A DNA stretch of 64,000 nucleotides. Source: a virus. The stretch covers positions 1-64,000 of IMG/VR virus record IMGVR_UViG_3300031251_000007, one strand, 5' to 3'. This document shows positions 4,457 through 12,331 of the stretch, one piece after another (positions within the stretch are counted from its first letter, which is position 1; every line of letters begins with the position of its first letter). The translations under genes were made by a program, and so were the position numbers. The notes under the pieces were generated by a model. It was not told the DNA's origin. It did not search any database and saw only the letters and a list, made by a program, of their open reading frames with translations.

Positions 4457-5148
4457 GCACTCCTCCGCTCATCCACAGCATCATCGTCGCAGTAGAATCT
4501 GGCTCTGACGCCATCATGCTTCGCCACGATCGGTCCGAGCTTTCCCTTGCGCGCCAAGCCCACCAACGCCCGCGCGCTCTCGACCGTGCGGTAGTGCGTC
4601 ACCTGCGCAGCAAGGATCTCTTCGAGCGTGCAGCGGGGATGCTCACGCACGTACGCAATCAGCTGCTGCACGTCGCTGCGGAACACGGTGAAGTAGCTGC
4701 TGTCTGCATTCCCCGGCAGCGCCCAGAATTTGTGCTCTTCGCGGAGATGCTGCCCGAGCTCGCCCAGCTCCGTGCGCAAGAGTGGTGCCGGCACGGGCTC
4801 GGCGATGCCGCTCCTGCCGACGACGATCCACCCGAGCTTCAAACCTTCCAGTATCTCGCGCTTGATCGCTTCGTCCTCGCTGCGGCCGAGCGGCGGTGTG
4901 GCAACAGCGACCCAGTTCGCGTACGGGCGCCACTTCGCTGCCTGCAGCATCACGTCTAAGCCGAGGTGCATCTTGCACTCGACGACGAGGATGGATTGCG
5001 CGAGTTCCGGCGTGGCGACGATGTCGGGGCGCTTGCCGCCCTGCTCCATCTGGACCTCGCCGTAGACCTCGTATTTCTGGCGTCGCAGGTGTTGGGCGAC
5101 TTCAGAGGCGAGGGATTGTTCGTGGGCGGAGCGAACGCGGCGGGTCAT
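4453..5148 (-). CDS. PD-(D/E)XK nuclease-fold protein
   Basis: 231 residues. The N-terminal third has the core of the nuclease superfamily: RPDIVA (Asp42) followed after a strand by VVECKM (Glu57, Lys59). The C-terminal part (SDVQQLIAYVREHPRCTLEEILA, then a wing-like segment) looks like a winged helix. Together these suggest a DNA-binding protein with restriction-endonuclease-like active site. It overlaps the methylase stop by 4 bases, downstream of methylase and helicase, so the three may work together on DNA. Confidence 0.75.
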   Translation of the reverse strand: MTRRVRSAHEQSLASEVAQHLRRQKYEVYGEVQMEQGGKRPDIVATPELAQSILVVECKMHLGLDVMLQAAKWRPYANWVAVATPPLGRSEDEAIKREILEGLKLGWIVVGRSGIAEPVPAPLLRTELGELGQHLREEHKFWALPGNADSSYFTVFRSDVQQLIAYVREHPRCTLEEILAAQVTHYRTVESARALVGLARKGKLGPIVAKHDGVRARFYCDDDAVDERRSA

Positions 5149-6203
5149 GCGGTGGCCTCCGCGACCAACGGCGGGTCATTGCGCAGCATCTCCAGCTGCC
5201 GCAGTGACCCGCGGCCGTTGGCGATCGCGTCCTCAATGTTGCGCAGCGCCTGGCTGTAGTACGACGGCTTCAACTCCACGCCGATCGCGCGCCGGTCGTT
5301 GCACAGCGCCGCCCAGACCTCAGAGCCCACGCCCATGAACGGCGTCAGCATAGTCTCGCCCGGATTCGACCACAGGGTCAGGAGGCGCTCGACGACATCG
5401 AGCTGTAGGGGGTGCAGGTGCTTCTCGTCCTCCGGATCGCGCGCCACCTTGTACTTCAGCACCCGATCGATACGGACATCGTCCCAGAAGGCGGATGCGT
5501 ACTGCCGCCAGATCCAGTGCGAATAGCGATTCTCGATCTGGTTGCCCTCAAAGCCGCGGTAGCGGAGCAGCTCGGCCGGGATCTGCCGCGCGCCGGCGTA
5601 TTCGAGTAGGCCATGCGGATGCGCGATCGGAATCGGGTTCTTGCCGTGCCGACGGAAGACCAGCACCTGATCGGCGGCCGCGTTGCTGCAGCGCGATGAG
5701 TCATCGACGATGGTCCGGTGCGCGAGGTTCTTCGCCATCGTCCGGTTGCGTACGCCGAGCGGCTCCTTCCAAACGTGGTACCGCGCGACGAGTTCGAACC
5801 AGCCGTGCCCACACTCGCCGTTGGCACGCTTGAGCGGCGCCGCCTTGCAGCTCGACTTGCGGCAGTGCGCGTGCAGCTTGATCACATCGCCGGGGAAGTC
5901 GATCAGGTGATCGGTGCCGGTGTTGCCCGACGGCACGTCCATGCAGTGCACGGCGGTCATCCGCCCCGGGATGGTGACGCGCTCCACCTCGCGCACGATG
6001 TGGTCGTAGTGTTCGAAGAATTTGTCGTAGGACGGCGCGTTCGACAGGTCGCGGTCCGATGACGAGTAGTGGAACAGGCCGACAAACGGCGGCGAGTAGA
6101 TCGACAGATGTATCGACTCGTCGTGCAGCGCCGAGAGGACCTCGCAGGAATCGCCGAGGTACACGGCGAAACGGTCGCTGATCTCTTGCGCGCCTACGCC
6201 CAT
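5145..6203 (-). CDS. DNA methylase, beta class (N4-cytosine or N6-adenine)
   Basis: 352 residues. Motif IV near the N-terminus reads SIYSPPF (about residue 36) and motif I near the C-terminus reads LTPFMGVGSEVWAAL, so the order is that of the beta class of amino-methyltransferases. The SPPF form of motif IV is more usual for N4-cytosine than for N6-adenine enzymes, but this is not decisive. A Cys/His-rich insert (HCRKSSCKAAPL to CGHGW) lies between. The start ATG is inside the helicase gene (10-base overlap). Likely protects phage DNA from restriction, or acts with the adjoining helicase and nuclease. Confidence 0.9.
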   Translation of the reverse strand: MGVGAQEISDRFAVYLGDSCEVLSALHDESIHLSIYSPPFVGLFHYSSSDRDLSNAPSYDKFFEHYDHIVREVERVTIPGRMTAVHCMDVPSGNTGTDHLIDFPGDVIKLHAHCRKSSCKAAPLKRANGECGHGWFELVARYHVWKEPLGVRNRTMAKNLAHRTIVDDSSRCSNAAADQVLVFRRHGKNPIPIAHPHGLLEYAGARQIPAELLRYRGFEGNQIENRYSHWIWRQYASAFWDDVRIDRVLKYKVARDPEDEKHLHPLQLDVVERLLTLWSNPGETMLTPFMGVGSEVWAALCNDRRAIGVELKPSYYSQALRNIEDAIANGRGSLRQLEMLRNDPPLVAEATA

Positions 6204-7564
6204 GCCGGCACCTGTTCGACTTCAGGAAAGCTGCGTCGGTGATCGATGGCCGCGGCGCCACGCATGTGGCGCACCAGAGCGGCGAACATCTCGTCTGCGG
6301 CCGCCGCTTTGCGCCGCAGGTTCGCCATCACATTGCGGTCGCCTTCGGTACCAATGAGGTCGACCGTGACCGGGCGCGTCTGTCCGAAGCGCCAGCAGCG
6401 CCGGACTGCCTGATAGTACCGTTCGTAACTGTGGTCGGGGAAATAGGTGAGGTGCGCGCAGTGCTGCCAGTTGAGCCCGAAGCACCCGATCGGTGGCTTG
6501 GTGATCAGGCGGTCTATCTGCCCTCGCGCAAACGCGCTGAAGGCCTCTTCCTTCTCCTCATCGCTGTCGGTGCCGCTCACCTGCTTCGCGCCCGGAATGA
6601 GCTTCTCGAGCAGATCGGCCTCGGCGTTGAGGTGGCACCAGATGACCGAGCTGTCGTGGCCAGCCAGGCGCTCGGCCACCGCTTCGCAACGCTCGCGCAG
6701 CGTGCGCCGGCGCTCCTCACGTTGCTCCTGCAGGCCGACGGCCGCCATCGGGAAGAGCTGACCTGGCGCAAGCGTGCGCGATTCGATCAGCACTTCGTTC
6801 TCGATCAGTGCCGGCAGCGCAAAGCGCGCGTCGTCGAAGCCGAGGTCGGACGGTCGCCGCGCGGCGCGCGCCCACGAGGCGACCCAGCGCCAGAATGGCT
6901 CCTGCGCATGGCCCTTGAAACGGAACTTCTCGCCAGGCGCCGACCGTGCGAATTTCACGCCGTCCTGCGTCGGCCGGAAGAAGCGCGAGAGCATGTCGGT
7001 ATGGCCTAGGTAGCCGAGGGCCTCCGAGGACGTGCCGAGCTCCACGTAGTCGTTCGGCGCCGCCGTGGCGGTCGCGAGCAGCCGGAATGGGATCGTGCGC
7101 GCGAACTCCGTCACGGTCGCGCGGCGCTTGCCCTCGAAGTGCTTGATGGCGCTCGACTCGTCGCCGACGAACCCGCCGTAATCCCTCGGATCGAAGAGGT
7201 GCAGCCGCTCGTAATTGGTGACCGTGATGTTGGGACGCGGCTTGCCGTCGGAGGAGCGGTGCGCCTCGATGCCGAACTTCTCTGCCTCGGCGACGATCTG
7301 CGGACTGACCGCGAGCGCCGTGGCCAGCAGCACCGGCTTGTTGGTCTCACGTACGACGTTGTCGGCCCAGACAAGCTCGATCGGCGTCTTGCCCATGCCG
7401 CAGTCGGCGAAGATGCCGGCGCGACCGCGCGCGGCGCCGAATTCGAGCAGTGCGGACTGGAAATCGAACAGGAAGTCCGGCCGCCAGCGGAGCGGAAAGC
7501 CGGTGCAGTCGGCGTTCTGCGCTTTCGCCGCCAGGAACGCGCGATATTCTTCGAGCCGCGTCAC
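6194..7564 (-). CDS. SNF2/DEAD-like helicase
   Basis: 456 residues from a GTG with a GAGGTGG ribosome site upstream. Helicase motifs: Walker A GMGKT (56-60), motif II DESS (135-138), motif III TATAAP, and a C-terminal RecA-like domain ending in the motif VI segment QAVRRCWRFGQTRP. The order and the QxxRR form place it in superfamily 2, SNF2-like. The protein is short compared with chromatin remodelers, as is usual in phages. It is translated just before the methylase with a 10-base overlap; helicase-methylase pairs of this kind are common in phage genomes. Confidence 0.9.
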   Translation of the reverse strand: MTRLEEYRAFLAAKAQNADCTGFPLRWRPDFLFDFQSALLEFGAARGRAGIFADCGMGKTPIELVWADNVVRETNKPVLLATALAVSPQIVAEAEKFGIEAHRSSDGKPRPNITVTNYERLHLFDPRDYGGFVGDESSAIKHFEGKRRATVTEFARTIPFRLLATATAAPNDYVELGTSSEALGYLGHTDMLSRFFRPTQDGVKFARSAPGEKFRFKGHAQEPFWRWVASWARAARRPSDLGFDDARFALPALIENEVLIESRTLAPGQLFPMAAVGLQEQREERRRTLRERCEAVAERLAGHDSSVIWCHLNAEADLLEKLIPGAKQVSGTDSDEEKEEAFSAFARGQIDRLITKPPIGCFGLNWQHCAHLTYFPDHSYERYYQAVRRCWRFGQTRPVTVDLIGTEGDRNVMANLRRKAAAADEMFAALVRHMRGAAAIDHRRSFPEVEQVPAWA

Positions 7565-8665: not shown

Positions 8666-8781
8666 GCCACACCTCGATCAAGAGAGGGGGCGGCGACGGA
8701 TCGGTGTTGAGCTTGGGCAGCCCGACCCGCCGCCGGAATGCCGCCGGGGGATCGCCGGACGGCAAGGATGATGGATTCAGA

Positions 8782-8814
8782 CGGCGCGCCAGCCGCAGAA
8801 ATGCTGGCGCGCCG
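8782..8814. other. Perfect 12-bp hairpin
   Basis: CGGCGCGCCAGC and GCTGGCGCGCCG face each other around a 9-base loop. There is no following T run on either strand, so it is not a classical terminator. It may be an RNA structure in the leader of the operon below, or a DNA site. Confidence 0.5.
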
Positions 8815-9020
8815 CCGTACCGCCCTCGAGCAAGCAAGCTGCACCTGCTCCTGCCGCCACCGGCGGCGTCGCGTATGCCCTCCGACCTGGTCGCGGGTAC
8901 TGGTACGCGCGGCGACCAGACCGTGCTCGCGTACCCCATGCCTTGTCGGGCTGACCGAAGTCAGCGAAGGGCTCTGTGGATTCTGGATAACTTCCGCTAC
9001 TGGTCCCGGAACCACTTTCG

Positions 9021-9041
9021 CCACCCGATTTAGGGTGGTTT
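9021..9041. promoter_or_regulatory. Inverted repeat CCACCC-N-GGGTGG followed by TTT
   Basis: CCACCC, a 5-base spacer ending in A, and GGGTGG, then TTT. It could be a short terminator on the plus strand facing the att site or an operator. The near-copy at 1963-1982 (CCACCCACCTAGGGTGGTTT) lies inside a gene, which argues against a simple promoter operator. Confidence 0.3.
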
Positions 9042-9092
9042 GCCCCCGATTCGCACTCGGGCTATAGGACGCAAGCCCTCGTAAACCCTTGC

Positions 9093-9136
9093 GCGCCCGT
9101 AGCTCAGTTGGACTAGAGCGTCTGGCTTCGAACCAG
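9093..9136 (+). tRNA. 5' half of tRNA-Arg(TCG): candidate attachment site
   Basis: The sequence reads as tRNA positions 1 to about 42: acceptor strand GCGCCCG, D stem GCTC/GAGC, anticodon stem TCTGG, loop CTTCGAA with anticodon TCG (Arg), then CCAG. Identity stops there; no variable loop, T arm or 3' acceptor follows. The integrase gene ends 14 bases downstream, pointing toward it. This is the classical setting of a tRNA anticodon-loop attachment site. Because phage genes lie on both sides, it is best read as attP rather than a prophage end. It is not a functional tRNA gene. Confidence 0.75.
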
Positions 9137-9149
9137 TAGTGAGCGTTAT

Positions 9150-10400
9150 TCACGGCGTTTCCCCCGATGTCCGCCGGACCAAAACCGGACCGTTTTCGCT
9201 GCCAATTTTTTCGAGCGCCTCGTTCAGCCGCATGAGCTGCGCTTCATCGGCGTGCGGCAGGTACCGGGCGTAGTGTTTCTCCAGCGTCGCCACCGAAGCG
9301 CCGACCTGGCGCGAGATCCAAAACAGGTCGACACCGCCAGAGACCGCCAGCGAAATGAACGTGCACCGCGTGTCGTAGAGGCGCCGTGGCCGCACCTCCG
9401 CAGAAGACAGTGCGGCGCGCCAGTGCGTCTTGGCGAAGCGGTCCTGGTTGATTGGGCAGCGGCTGGGCGTCGTGAATACGGGCAGCGCCTCGCCGGGATG
9501 AAGCGGGCGCAGCTCGCGCAGCAGATCGGTTGCATGCTGCGACAAGCGCACTGTGCGTCGGCTTGCGCGTGTCTTCGTTGAGCCGACGATGCCGCTCACC
9601 CGCGAGCGCCGAATAAACACGCGGCGCGCCGACAGGTCCACATCGCCCCAGGTGAGCCCGGTAGCTTCGGATGGCCGCATCCCTGTCGCGAACAGAAACG
9701 CAATCAGACCGTGCGACCAACGCCGGACGGTGCCCTTCTTCCGCGCGCTGAGCGGGGCCTCGCGCAGCTTCGCCAAGATCTTGTCGCGCTCCTCGGCGGT
9801 GAACGGATCCGGGTCCTCGATCTCCTTCGCCGGCCAGCGCAGCTTGAGGCATGGATTCACCTTGACGACGTGGTCGACGTCGAGTGCGGTGGCGAAGAGG
9901 CCGCTCAACGACCCCTGCAGGTAGTTGCGCGCCGATTTCATCTTGAGCCCGGCGCCGACCCACTGGCCGCGTGCTGCTTCCAGCACCGCAGGCGTGATCG
10001 CCCTTAGGCGCATGGCGCCGATCCGCACACCGTCGAGCTGCGTGGCAGCGAGTTTCTTGATCGCGGTATTGAGCTCCTTGTACCGCTTCGCCTTGACCGA
10101 CTGGCGCGCGAGCCATTCCGTCGCGTACCGATCGAAGGTCGGCTGCGCCGTCTCCTGCACCTCGATGCCGAGTGCGGCCTGCATCTCGGCGGCGCGCAGG
10201 CCGTGCGGGAAGAAGTGCAGATAGCGCGCCGGCCCGAAGTCGCCCGCCTTGATGGCCTCGGAGACGCGCGCGGCATAGCGCTCCGCCTTGGCGCGGTTCT
10301 CCGGCGTGTCGGGCCACGTCGTGCGCTCAGGCCAGCGTCGCCCCTGATGCCACAGGCGCAGCACGAGCTTGCCGTCGCGCGATTGCACCGCCGCGCCCAT
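9150..10400 (-). CDS. int: Tyrosine integrase
   Basis: 416 residues. N-terminal arm-binding domain (residues 1-65), core-binding helices, then the catalytic domain with Arg in GMRPSEATGL (about 241), the second Arg in YDTRCTFIS (345) and the nucleophile Tyr377 in KHYARYLP. The His of the usual HxxR box is Tyr here and the HTF His is Cys; such variants are known in phage integrases. It catalyses site-specific integration, most likely at a tRNA-Arg(TCG) gene given the adjoining fragment. The start ATG overlaps the stop of the upstream HTH gene by one base. Confidence 0.95.
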   Translation of the reverse strand: MGAAVQSRDGKLVLRLWHQGRRWPERTTWPDTPENRAKAERYAARVSEAIKAGDFGPARYLHFFPHGLRAAEMQAALGIEVQETAQPTFDRYATEWLARQSVKAKRYKELNTAIKKLAATQLDGVRIGAMRLRAITPAVLEAARGQWVGAGLKMKSARNYLQGSLSGLFATALDVDHVVKVNPCLKLRWPAKEIEDPDPFTAEERDKILAKLREAPLSARKKGTVRRWSHGLIAFLFATGMRPSEATGLTWGDVDLSARRVFIRRSRVSGIVGSTKTRASRRTVRLSQHATDLLRELRPLHPGEALPVFTTPSRCPINQDRFAKTHWRAALSSAEVRPRRLYDTRCTFISLAVSGGVDLFWISRQVGASVATLEKHYARYLPHADEAQLMRLNEALEKIGSENGPVLVRRTSGETP

Positions 10401-10735
10401 CAGTCGATCAGCTCCTCGTTCAGCGGGCAGCCGCGGTGCGGTTGCGCAACGCCAGGGATCGGTTGCGGTGCGCCTTCGCGAACCCAGGTCTCGAGCGCTT
10501 TGCGGCTATAGAGCGGCGCCGAGCCCTTCGGCTTGAACCAATGCACGCCGCGCCGCCAGCGCTTGGATTTGCGCAGCGCGTCGATGGTCGCGGGCGCCTT
10601 GCGCAAGAGCGCTGCCGCTTCGTCGCGGGACAGAAAGTCGCCGAGCGGCGGCACAAGATCGCCACGCCCACGCTTTTGTTTGCCCGCCTCTACCACCTGC
10701 TCCGCCACGATCCCTATCCCACCTCGCTGTCCCAC
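10400..10735 (-). CDS. HTH excisionase-like protein
   Basis: Up to 111 residues from a GTG; an inner GTG (VAEQVVEAGKQK) may be the true start. The core FLSRDEAAALLRKAPATIDALRKSKRWRRGVHWFKPKGSAPLYSRKALETWV is a MerR/excisionase type winged helix. It lies directly upstream of the integrase with a one-base overlap, the usual place for a recombination directionality factor. It probably bends DNA at the attachment site and steers the integrase toward excision. Confidence 0.8.
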   Translation of the reverse strand: MGQRGGIGIVAEQVVEAGKQKRGRGDLVPPLGDFLSRDEAAALLRKAPATIDALRKSKRWRRGVHWFKPKGSAPLYSRKALETWVREGAPQPIPGVAQPHRGCPLNEELID

Positions 10736-10777: not shown

Positions 10778-10984
10778 CTAGACTGCTCTCAGCGTCCTGA
10801 CTTTCTTCTCGCGCCCGTCGCCATGTAGCGCGACGATGCGATAGGCCGCGCCGTCGACGTCCATGACGACACCGCGCTCGGCGTACCACCGCACTTCGCG
10901 CCGGCCCTTCTGCACGCCGGCGGCGCTGCCGACGAGATGGCCGATGAGGATGCCGAACAGCACGAGCCCGATGGCGAGCATCAC
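10778..10984 (-). CDS. Small membrane-anchored protein
   Basis: 67 or 68 residues, with ATG at 10979-10981 or the preceding GTG. Residues 2-25 (MLAIGLVLFGILIGHLVGSAAG) form a single membrane segment, followed by a basic, beta-rich cytoplasmic tail (VVMDVDGAAYRIVALHGDG). Function unknown. It is in the integrase operon. Confidence 0.65.
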   Translation of the reverse strand: MMLAIGLVLFGILIGHLVGSAAGVQKGRREVRWYAERGVVMDVDGAAYRIVALHGDGREKKVRTLRAV

Positions 10985-11382
10985 CGACGCGCCTCCGCGC
11001 GTGGCGCCCCTACGACTGCAGCCACCCAGGCCGCGGACTCGAAACCGCGCGCGGCGAGATTTGGAGTCTCACCTGTGCCCTGCACGCCTGGATGATAGGT
11101 AAGGGTGGCGAATTGTAGATCGCTATCTACCGGCCCTACCCTACCGCAATCGCTCGCGCTGCCCGCAGCGGATCCGCCAACAGCCGCAACGACATCGGCG
11201 ATTGCGCCAGGCGTCTGGCGTGTGTTAGCGTCCAGATTGTAGCTGTCAATTTGCGCTACCCCGTCGCTGCCCTGACGCGATATTACCTGGCGGCAGCCTG
11301 GCGATGTTATATCAACCGCGATCTTTCCCGTACGCGGATCGGCGAATGTCCCATCTGGCCTAAGCCGGTTGGCATCAGGCAT
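10981..11382 (-). CDS. Possible hypothetical protein
   Basis: 133 residues from an ATG at 11380-11382 (MPDANRLRPDGTFADPRTGKIAVDI). The composition is more protein-like than that of the longer frame it belongs to, with a reasonable mixture of residues, and its stop overlaps the next small gene. No family is recognised. A perfect inverted repeat GTAGAT-CGCT-ATCTAC at 11115-11130 lies inside it, which could mean the region is regulatory instead. Uncertain. Confidence 0.4.
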   Translation of the reverse strand: MPDANRLRPDGTFADPRTGKIAVDITSPGCRQVISRQGSDGVAQIDSYNLDANTRQTPGAIADVVAAVGGSAAGSASDCGRVGPVDSDLQFATLTYHPGVQGTGETPNLAARGFESAAWVAAVVGAPRAEARR

Positions 11383-12055
11383 CTCACTGACACCGCGCAC
11401 CTGTGGGGACCTGACGCGCGGGAAGGAAGAATGCCCGGAGCTTCGCCGACGGTTGGGACGACCGGCGGAGAGCCTTCGGTGGGATCGCGCATCGGGCGCA
11501 AGACGGGACTGGTGCGGGAAGAAGGAGCGCGATGGATCCGAGAGGCGCGATGGCGTGCGCAAGTGCGCGCATTCGTGTGGTGATCGCGTGCACGACGGCT
11601 CAGCCGCGTCAGGGCGCCGCAGCATTGCAAGCGTTCGCCGCTGAGCTGCGGCGCACGGAGCGAGGCGCCGGGCCGACGCCGATACAGGGAGGGCATCGGC
11701 ACGCTCGATGCTCAGCGCGTTCGCGTGCGCAATGTGAATGAACGTTCGCCGAATGCCTGCGTCAACGAAGGGCGCGGTCGCCACCGGGTGGCGGGGGCCG
11801 CGCGTATAGTTCCAGAGTAGCAGCCGGGATTGACCGGCGGGGGTAGCGATGGGAGCGAATGGAAGCGAGACACAAGCCCTTGTGTTCACAAAGCCTAAAA
11901 CAGTCGTATTGCGCGCGGGCGAAAATTCGGCGAATCTACGTCCGCGTCGTATGGCTTCCGCCCTGCGACATCCAACACTCAATTCGCGTGATCGGTCCAA
12001 CGCACGGTGCGTTCGGGTATCGCCGCGTGCTGACGAAGCCTGACTTGGGGGACAG
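11383..12055. other. Regulatory gap between leftward and rightward modules
   Basis: About 670 bases in which no frame looks like a real protein; candidates are Arg/Ser-rich and change quality along their length. A plus-strand frame from 11849 (MGANGSETQALVF) reads well for about 30 residues only. The region becomes locally more AT-rich near 11880-11950 and holds a perfect inverted repeat at 11870-11885. I interpret it as part of the lysogeny switch. Confidence 0.4.
11870..11885. promoter_or_regulatory. Palindrome ACACAAG-CC-CTTGTGT, possible operator
   Basis: A perfect 7-bp inverted repeat with a 2-base spacer in the switch region. Another half-like TTCACAAAG follows at once. Size and symmetry fit a dimeric repressor site; no cognate regulator is identified. 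Confidence 0.4.
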
Positions 12056-12331
12056 ATGGACCGATCGTCGCGGCGTGATAGGGGACGTGGCGTGGCGGAG
12101 GCGGATGTGGAAACGAACAATCGGCGCGTCGCATGCACAGCGGCGCTCCTCGACATCGCTTGCGGCTCGCGTCGAGGGCCACGAATCGAACTCTCCGACG
12201 AGGAGCGCTCAATCGGCGACGCACTCGCATCGGGCGAGACGGCGGCGGCGCTGAGTTCGCGACTCGGCATGGCGCCCGAGCGCTTGGCATACGCCTGCGT
12301 GCGCATCATCCACGCCTCGCCTACTGATTGA
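12056..12331 (+). CDS. Possible small HTH-like protein
   Basis: 91 residues. The C-terminal half (IELSDEERSIGDALASGETAAALSSRLGMAPERLAYACVRIIHAS) has the pattern of a helix-turn-helix with a Ser/Ala recognition helix; the N-terminal half is Arg-rich and may not be translated. Its end overlaps the convergent gene at 12321 by 11 bases. If real, it would be a small regulator in the switch region. Confidence 0.4.
   Translation: MDRSSRRDRGRGVAEADVETNNRRVACTAALLDIACGSRRGPRIELSDEERSIGDALASGETAAALSSRLGMAPERLAYACVRIIHASPTD

What the first reader, a model, noticed from the sequence alone, without database searches (positions are those of the whole stretch)
9093..9136. 5' half of tRNA-Arg(TCG) beside the integrase
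Most attachment sites keep the 3' part of the tRNA; here the fragment covers positions 1 to about 42 and stops just after the anticodon stem-loop. Insertion would then replace the 5' half of the host tRNA and leave it with a phage-borne upstream region. The orientation and this sublocation make the host target specific and testable.
Basis: partly seen in the sequence, partly recalled or inferred. Interest (0 to 1): 0.5.

Follow-up and report, generated by a model that had tools for sequence, protein, structure and literature searches.

The report
Phage attachment site: tRNA-Arg 5' half
A bacterial virus carries, beside its integrase gene, the first half of an arginine tRNA gene, so that insertion into a host would rebuild the tRNA with the virus's own DNA in front of it; most known insertions rebuild the other end, so this is an uncommon but already recognised arrangement.

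Summary
9093-9136 is positions 1-42 of a tRNA-Arg(TCG) gene, from nucleotide 1 to the end of the anticodon stem. It lies 13 bp past the end of a tyrosine integrase gene, with phage genes on both sides, in an 87.8-kb virus record. It is best read as attP. Integration would leave host promoter + 5' half beside int, and an intact tRNA at the far junction behind phage DNA. In silico, phage 5' half + bacterial 3' half is called tRNA-Arg(TCG) at 11 of 11 loci tested; the reciprocal junction at none. The host is probably an acidobacterium (tRNA match; related prophage with 43% identical terminase). The exact 44 bases were not found in the genome collection: the phage has one extra C in the D-loop. 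No integrated copy was found. The best-scoring viral integrase relative and the related acidobacterial prophage carry a tRNA 3' half, so the 5' half is the exception among cases seen. It is not a new kind: Islander counted 159 of 3919 islands with a 5' fragment, and archaeal pTN3-like elements do the same. Where in the block strands are exchanged, and whether a phage promoter drives the tRNA, remain open.

The parts
9093..9136 (+). 5' half (positions 1-42) of tRNA-Arg(TCG), the shared block of attP
   Evidence: sequence; RF00005 27.2 bits at 9093-9147, below gathering 29; one-gap match to acidobacterial tRNA-Arg(TCG) genes
9121..9136 (+). anticodon arm, stem TCTGG/CCAG and 7-base loop CTTCGAA; candidate core with 7-bp overlap region (inferred)
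   Evidence: sequence; the shared block of the related prophage in G378 also takes in the anticodon loop
9106..9115 (+). D-loop AGTTGGACTA, one base (C) longer than in the 42 rows (41 places) of tRNA-Arg aligned; the same D-arm occurs in an intact viral tRNA-Arg(TCT), L082
9150..10400 (-). tyrosine integrase, 416 aa, Arg242, Arg345 and Tyr377 in place; its 3' end faces the tRNA fragment
   Evidence: PF00589 1e-11 and PF12167 arm-binding domain 1.9e-10; phrog_1 4.9e-51; invariant columns
9174..9191 (-). pair of GGTCCGG, period 11, inside the last integrase codons: candidate int-proximal arm-type binding sites
   Evidence: same place and period in phages JBD44 and MD8 and in L181, not in ACPWH
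8666..9092 (+). phage intergenic DNA that would lie upstream of the regenerated tRNA; one weak promoter-like site TTGCCC-17-TATAGG at 9040-9068, not above chance
   Evidence: ORFs here lack the strong third-position GC of the neighbours; promoter scans
9004..9025 (-). possible int-distal arm pair (period 12), not distinguishable from background
10400..10735 (-). 111-aa ORF directly upstream of int, no family match

Best explanation
The segment is the shared block of attP of a temperate phage whose integrase targets the tRNA-Arg(TCG) gene of its host, probably an acidobacterium. The phage carries tRNA positions 1-42 instead of the usual 3' half. Recombination anywhere inside the block gives two junctions: beside int, host promoter + tRNA 5' half running into phage DNA (a dead fragment); at the other end, phage intergenic DNA + 5' half + host 3' half, an intact tRNA gene now behind phage-borne sequence. 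Shown: the half tRNA, its place, the integrase, a repeat pair at the proximal-arm position, and that the hybrid is called tRNA-Arg(TCG). Inferred: integration at this gene, strand exchange in the anticodon arm, expression from a phage promoter, host phylum.
For: Half tRNA with both edges at functional boundaries, nucleotide 1 and the end of the anticodon stem. Integrase with arm-binding and catalytic domains 13 bp away. Phage genes on both sides and overlapping record ends, so this is not a host-phage junction. A period-11 repeat pair inside the last int codons, as in JBD44, MD8 and L181. Hybrid called tRNA-Arg(tcg) at 11 of 11 loci, reciprocal at 0 of 11 (11 of 42 rows at hand). Host: 9 of 12 pattern matches have titles of Acidobacteria groups; prophage in G378 with terminase 43% over 563 aa, portal 34%, head protein 31%, helicase 32%, against 22-25% in the 12 rows listed of 200 phage records for the terminase; G378 rpoB 64-65% identical to those of G004 (titled Paludibaculum), G008 and G009 (Bryobacterales).
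Against: The exact 44-mer is in no genome contig and its last 43 bases in no other viral contig; all 42 tRNA-Arg rows aligned lack the extra D-loop C. No integrated copy found: 12 of 396 sampled genomes hold integrase homologues at E <= 1e-12, none shown to sit at tRNA-Arg(TCG); in L029 and L034 an intact tRNA-Arg(TCG) is in the same tRNA cluster, but tRNA-Lys(CTT) is the one next to int. The related prophage and the best-scoring viral integrase relative are of the 3' kind. No convincing promoter. Arm evidence is partial: ACPWH has no such pair, only 1 of 43 loci with enough DNA past int (JBD44 itself) shows both GGT pairs, and a GGT-GGT pair of period 11 alone turns up in 14% of shuffles. Measured from the proximal pair, exchange in relatives lies near +92 to +97, here tRNA position 2-7, not the anticodon (+61 to +63).
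Confidence: 0.77

Rival explanations
1. Same attP, but strand exchange takes place at the 5' edge of the block (acceptor strand, tRNA positions about 1-9) rather than in the anticodon arm. The products are the same, but then nearly the whole regenerated tRNA is host DNA and the phage exchanges only the upstream region.
For: In 25 of 33 loci with the JBD44 arm sequence, record and phage part at +97 from the proximal arm; in L181 the putative anticodon end of the tRNA 3' half, read by eye, is at about +92; +92 to +97 here is 9099-9094. The block (+55 to +98) begins about as far from the arm as the tRNA half of L181 (from +52).
Against: It does not explain why tRNA likeness runs on to the end of the anticodon stem and stops there, nor why positions 8-42 stay tRNA-like. 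The distal arm, which would fix the midpoint, scores 10 of 16 here, as does background, against 14-15 of 16 in three controls.
Confidence: 0.25
2. Remnant of a complete phage tRNA-Arg gene that lost its 3' half; its position beside int is coincidence.
For: The D-arm with the extra C also occurs in an intact viral tRNA-Arg(TCT) in L082, on a 91.6-kb viral contig.
Against: No tRNA 3' remnant downstream; edges at nucleotide 1 and the anticodon stem end; 13 bp from the integrase stop and next to an arm-type pair.
Confidence: 0.08
3. tRNA-dependent lysogeny: integration destroys the host tRNA and the phage replaces it with its own.
For: Phage and tRNA gene are associated; such phages are known (PMC10865867, abstract and passages).
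Against: That mode has a core of about 10 bp and a phage tRNA of the same isotype. Here the shared block is 44 bp and ARAGORN finds no tRNA-Arg in the record.
Confidence: 0.02
4. The half tRNA acts as RNA, for example as a decoy or tRNA-like leader, and not in integration.
For: It is the strand that would fold into D- and anticodon arms.
Against: Nothing seen points to its transcription in the phage; no viral locus searched carries it elsewhere.
Confidence: 0.02

Closest known systems
Genomic islands and prophages with a 5' tDNA fragment (Islander, PMC4383910, Table 1, passages read)
   Same: tyrosine integrase; tRNA 5' fragment carried by the element
   Different: those 159 (of 3919) were mapped as integrated islands with both ends; here only the phage form is seen
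pTN3-like archaeal integrases, Thermococcales (PMC8371274 and PMC5495485, passages)
   Same: 41 bp shared between attP and the tRNA-Leu 5' half; tRNA rebuilt but separated from its own promoter; minimal site Leu2-44 compares with positions 1-42 here
   Different: the pTN3 integrase gene is disrupted by integration; here the site is outside the gene and int stays whole
Ordinary 3'-half attachment sites: prophage in G378 at tRNA-Thr(CGT), and L181
   Same: related phage (G378) or related integrase with a similar repeat layout (L181); tRNA sense strand points towards int in each
   Different: they carry a tRNA 3' half; the tRNA is rebuilt beside int with its own promoter (G378 mapped; L181 read by eye)
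tRNA-dependent lysogeny of actinobacteriophages (PMC10865867, abstract and passages)
   Same: tyrosine integrase aiming at a tRNA gene
   Different: about 10-bp core, tRNA not rebuilt, phage tRNA required; none of this here

Membership tests
tRNA-targeting tyrosine-integrase attP | tyrosine integrase gene next to the site | tested here: met
   PF00589, PF12167, phrog_1; 13 bp between stop and block
tRNA-targeting tyrosine-integrase attP | fragment of a tRNA gene that includes one end of the gene | tested here: met
   positions 1-42
tRNA-targeting tyrosine-integrase attP | identity to the host gene long enough to rebuild it | tested here: inconclusive
   one-gap match to tRNA-Arg(TCG); exact 44-mer absent from the genome collection; hybrids called as tRNA at 11 of 11 loci
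tRNA-targeting tyrosine-integrase attP | arm-type integrase sites on both sides of the core | tested here: inconclusive
   proximal pair present; distal pair not above background
5'-fragment integration (Islander 5' class) | 5' rather than 3' tDNA fragment in the element | tested here: met
5'-fragment integration (Islander 5' class) | integrated form with the 5' fragment upstream of a regenerated tRNA | tested here: inconclusive
   no integrated copy found; junctions only modelled
pTN3-like integrases | integration disrupts the integrase gene (site inside it) | tested here: not met
   block 9093-9136 lies outside the integrase ORF 9150-10400
tRNA-dependent lysogeny | short core of about 10 bp, tRNA not rebuilt | tested here: not met
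   44-base block, hybrid tRNA called
tRNA-dependent lysogeny | phage tRNA of the same isotype | tested here: not met
   no tRNA-Arg in the record by ARAGORN

The most novel reading that the evidence does not exclude
On lysogeny the phage takes over expression of the host's tRNA-Arg(TCG): the regenerated gene has a phage promoter and a phage-specific D-loop (one extra base), so CGA decoding in the lysogen comes under phage control, and within one integrase subfamily the tRNA half carried has switched from 3' to 5' in the same attP slot.
Probability: 0.2. Interest if true: 0.55.

Novelty: new member of a known kind. Interest (0 to 1): 0.32.

Why it matters
It gives a concrete target (tRNA-Arg TCG, positions 1-42) and a probable host phylum, and a case in which related integrases with a similar attP layout carry opposite tRNA halves. 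It could be used to ask why nearly all elements rebuild the tRNA 3' end, and what it costs an element to supply the tRNA's promoter.

Tried and rejected
Integrase, portal and terminase as single queries in viral contigs gave no relative. The integrase alignment A4 gave 80 loci (best 80 of 277); by BLAST none had the tRNA-Arg 5' half; L181, L251, L253, L257 and L260 had a clear T-arm past int. L181's tRNA 3' half is read by eye; Rfam did not report it at E <= 1. Searches for a tRNA-Arg(TCG) with a 10-base D-loop: 0 of 372 genomes of the phylum of G003 and 0 of 376 of the phylum of G008. The second sample carries the same handles as that of G001, so the 'Acidimicrobiia' title of G008 is taken as a misnomer (rpoB 80% to G004 and G009), and no Actinomycetota control exists. 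In one search the comparisons with L083 (G003) picked a wrong frame and were dropped. Promoter: one 8-of-12 site, expected 0.28, seen in 24% of shuffles, so not claimed. I first read the window's distal GGT pair (period 12) as the second arm (both pairs together in 2.6% of shuffles); a scan with controls did not separate it from background, so I dropped it as evidence. ARAGORN's tRNA-Trp at 11023-11093 was not supported by Rfam at E <= 1. One search scored at most two candidates a genome, so tRNA fragments at prophage ends could have been missed there.

Full report
What is there. The window is bases 1-64,000 of an 87,781-base virus record, 66% GC. The start and end of the record share two blocks (1-126 at 97.6% identity, 344-469 with the last 126 bases at 100%), so it probably closes into a circle with two variants of a short stretch. 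At 9093-9136 lie the first 42 positions of tRNA-Arg(TCG): acceptor 5' strand, D-arm, anticodon arm. Rfam sees a tRNA with most of its 3' part missing, 27.2 bits against a gathering score of 29. The next best 44-base stretch of the record shares 25 bases. The fragment starts at nucleotide 1 and stops at the end of the anticodon stem; 9137 differs from the bacterial genes, 9138-9139 agree with some of them, so the downstream edge is 9136 to 9139.

Surroundings. Thirteen bases past 9136 is the stop codon of a 416-aa tyrosine integrase read from the other strand (9150-10400; PF00589, PF12167, phrog_1), with Arg242, Arg345 and Tyr377 conserved. Left of the fragment are 427 bases (8666-9092) whose ORFs lack the third-position GC of 0.81-0.85 seen in four of the neighbouring genes (the best, 8704-9033, has 0.75), then phage genes: helicase, DNA methyltransferase, a radical-SAM protein. 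Structural genes follow further round. The site is therefore inside the phage genome and is not a host junction.

Arms. The last codons of int contain GGTCCGG twice with period 11 (9191-9174, minus strand). Phages JBD44 and MD8, whose integrases align with ours over 94-97% of its length at 28-29% identity, have TGGTAC-type pairs with period 11 in the last codons of int and a second pair with period 12 some 182-195 bases on. L181, the best-scoring of the 80 viral integrase loci kept (31%), has a GYCCACG pair with period 11 at the same place and one with period 12 at +171. Acidovorax phage ACPWH has no GGT pair, and of 43 loci with enough DNA past int only JBD44 itself (L209) has both GGT pairs; many of the others are integrated forms or may use other letters, which that test cannot see. 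In shuffles a bare GGT-GGT pair of period 11 occurs in 14% and both periods together in 2.6%; the seven-base repeat was not tested separately. In the window the second pair is not clear: the best candidate scores 10 of 16, like background, where the three controls score 14-15. So one arm is supported and the other is not.

Host. The exact 44-mer occurs in no contig of the genome collection, and its last 43 bases in no other viral contig. With zero or one base allowed at one place in the D-loop, and without the first four bases, 12 loci match; all lack the phage's extra C, all are tRNA-Arg(TCG) by ARAGORN, and 9 of 12 have titles of Acidobacteria groups. In a sample of 396 genomes of the phylum of G001 (titled Acidobacteria), 346 have a match at E <= 0.001. 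Aligning the 30 loci fetched there with the 12 above (42 rows, 41 places) shows tRNA-Arg with TCG or ACG anticodon each time, never with the longer D-loop. The same sample has 12 genomes with an integrase homologue at E <= 1e-12 and 10 with a portal homologue at E <= 1e-5. One of the latter, G378, holds a related prophage: terminase 43% over 563 aa, portal 34%, head protein 31%, helicase 32%, methyltransferase 26%; the 12 terminase rows listed (of 200 phage records) are at 22-25%, though one viral contig, L177, reaches 51%. G378's rpoB is 64-65% identical to those of G004, G008 and G009. An acidobacterial host is likely; the species is unknown. I had samples of the phyla of G001 and G003 only, and the G003 sample was searched for the tRNA pattern alone, so the phylum is not established by exclusion.

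What integration would do. Phage 5' half plus bacterial 3' half is called tRNA-Arg(tcg) at 11 of 11 loci tested (of 42 rows at hand), and bacterial 5' half plus phage downstream at 0 of 11. The extra C is compatible with a tRNA: an intact viral tRNA-Arg(TCT) with the identical D-arm exists in L082. Wherever inside the block the strands are exchanged, the products are: beside int, host promoter and a dead 5' half; at the far end, an intact tRNA behind phage DNA. The phage would have to supply the promoter. One weak site lies 24 bases before the tRNA, within chance; a stricter scan found none.

Where strands are exchanged. The edges of the block (nucleotide 1 and the end of the anticodon stem) are what an exchange in the anticodon arm would leave. 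Against this, of 33 other loci that carry the JBD44 arm sequence, 25 part from the phage at +97, 2 more end there, 4 show an earlier difference and 2 end at +39. In L181 the putative anticodon, read by eye, lies near +92. Here +92 to +97 is tRNA position 2-7, while the anticodon is at +61 to +63. I leave this open. The extra D-loop C will decide it in any lysogen.

Comparison. The prophage in G378 is bounded by a 50-base direct repeat, from the second base of the anticodon stem of tRNA-Thr(CGT) to one base past CCA: the ordinary 3' mode. Three other integrase homologues from the sample, L029, L034 and L037, end at or within about 90 bases of intact tRNA-Lys(CTT) genes; their far ends were not mapped. 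In L029 and L034 an intact tRNA-Arg(TCG) stands further off in the same cluster. L181 carries a tRNA 3' half between its repeat pairs, read by eye (not reported by Rfam). So the window's phage is the exception among the cases seen. In print, Islander lists 3760 islands with a 3' and 159 with a 5' fragment among 3919 (PMC4383910, passages). The review of archaeal recombinases says that pTN3-like elements use the tRNA 5' half, that the rebuilt tRNA is expressed from the integrase promoter, and that this is seldom met in bacteria (PMC8371274, passages). The pTN3 paper gives 41 shared bases and a minimal site Leu2-44 (PMC5495485, passages). Williams 2002, which defines the sublocations, was not held and is used only as these papers cite it. 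In six literature searches the listings showed no acidobacterial phage with such a site; only listings, abstracts and the passages named were read.

Verdict.

Noticed in passing
L096+L093+L094+L095 (G378 C35, 315000-394999): A prophage of about 51 kb in an acidobacterial genome related to the window's phage (terminase, portal, head protein, helicase), bounded by a 50-bp repeat of the tRNA-Thr(CGT) 3' half.
   Followed up: partly
window 5145-6203 and 6194-7564, minus strand: Helicase and DNA methyltransferase are two overlapping ORFs here, while the G378 prophage has matches to both in one 843-aa ORF (L094 14421-16952).
   Followed up: no
window 11023-11093, minus strand: ARAGORN calls a tRNA-Trp(CCA) with an odd D-arm; Rfam reports no tRNA there at E <= 1. 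The ORF around it (10981-12309) has no codon bias.
   Followed up: partly
record ends, bases 1-469 and 87418-87781 of G000: The ends overlap in two nearly identical blocks separated by a stretch that differs between the two copies: circular genome with a variable patch, or mixed assembly.
   Followed up: partly
L178 (Acidovorax phage ACPWH) 1898-1988: A whole tRNA gene (56 bits) lies about 160 bases past the related integrase in a named phage record; it may be a junction rather than attP.
   Followed up: no
L199-L252 against L209: JBD44-like viral records (hosts not told): comparison with the JBD44-length record L209 places an att boundary 97 bases from the first int-proximal repeat; the DNA beyond looks protein-coding by eye.
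   Followed up: partly
L016 (G008) and L012 (G005): Record titles Acidimicrobiia and Arcobacter sit on tRNA-Arg genes like those of Acidobacteria-titled records; for G008 rpoB and the shared phylum sample also point to Acidobacteriota, so the title seems wrong.
   Followed up: partly
L177 (IMGVR_UViG_3300020118_000164): A 93-kb viral record whose terminase is 51% identical to that of the window's phage, without a detectable integrase.
   Followed up: partly
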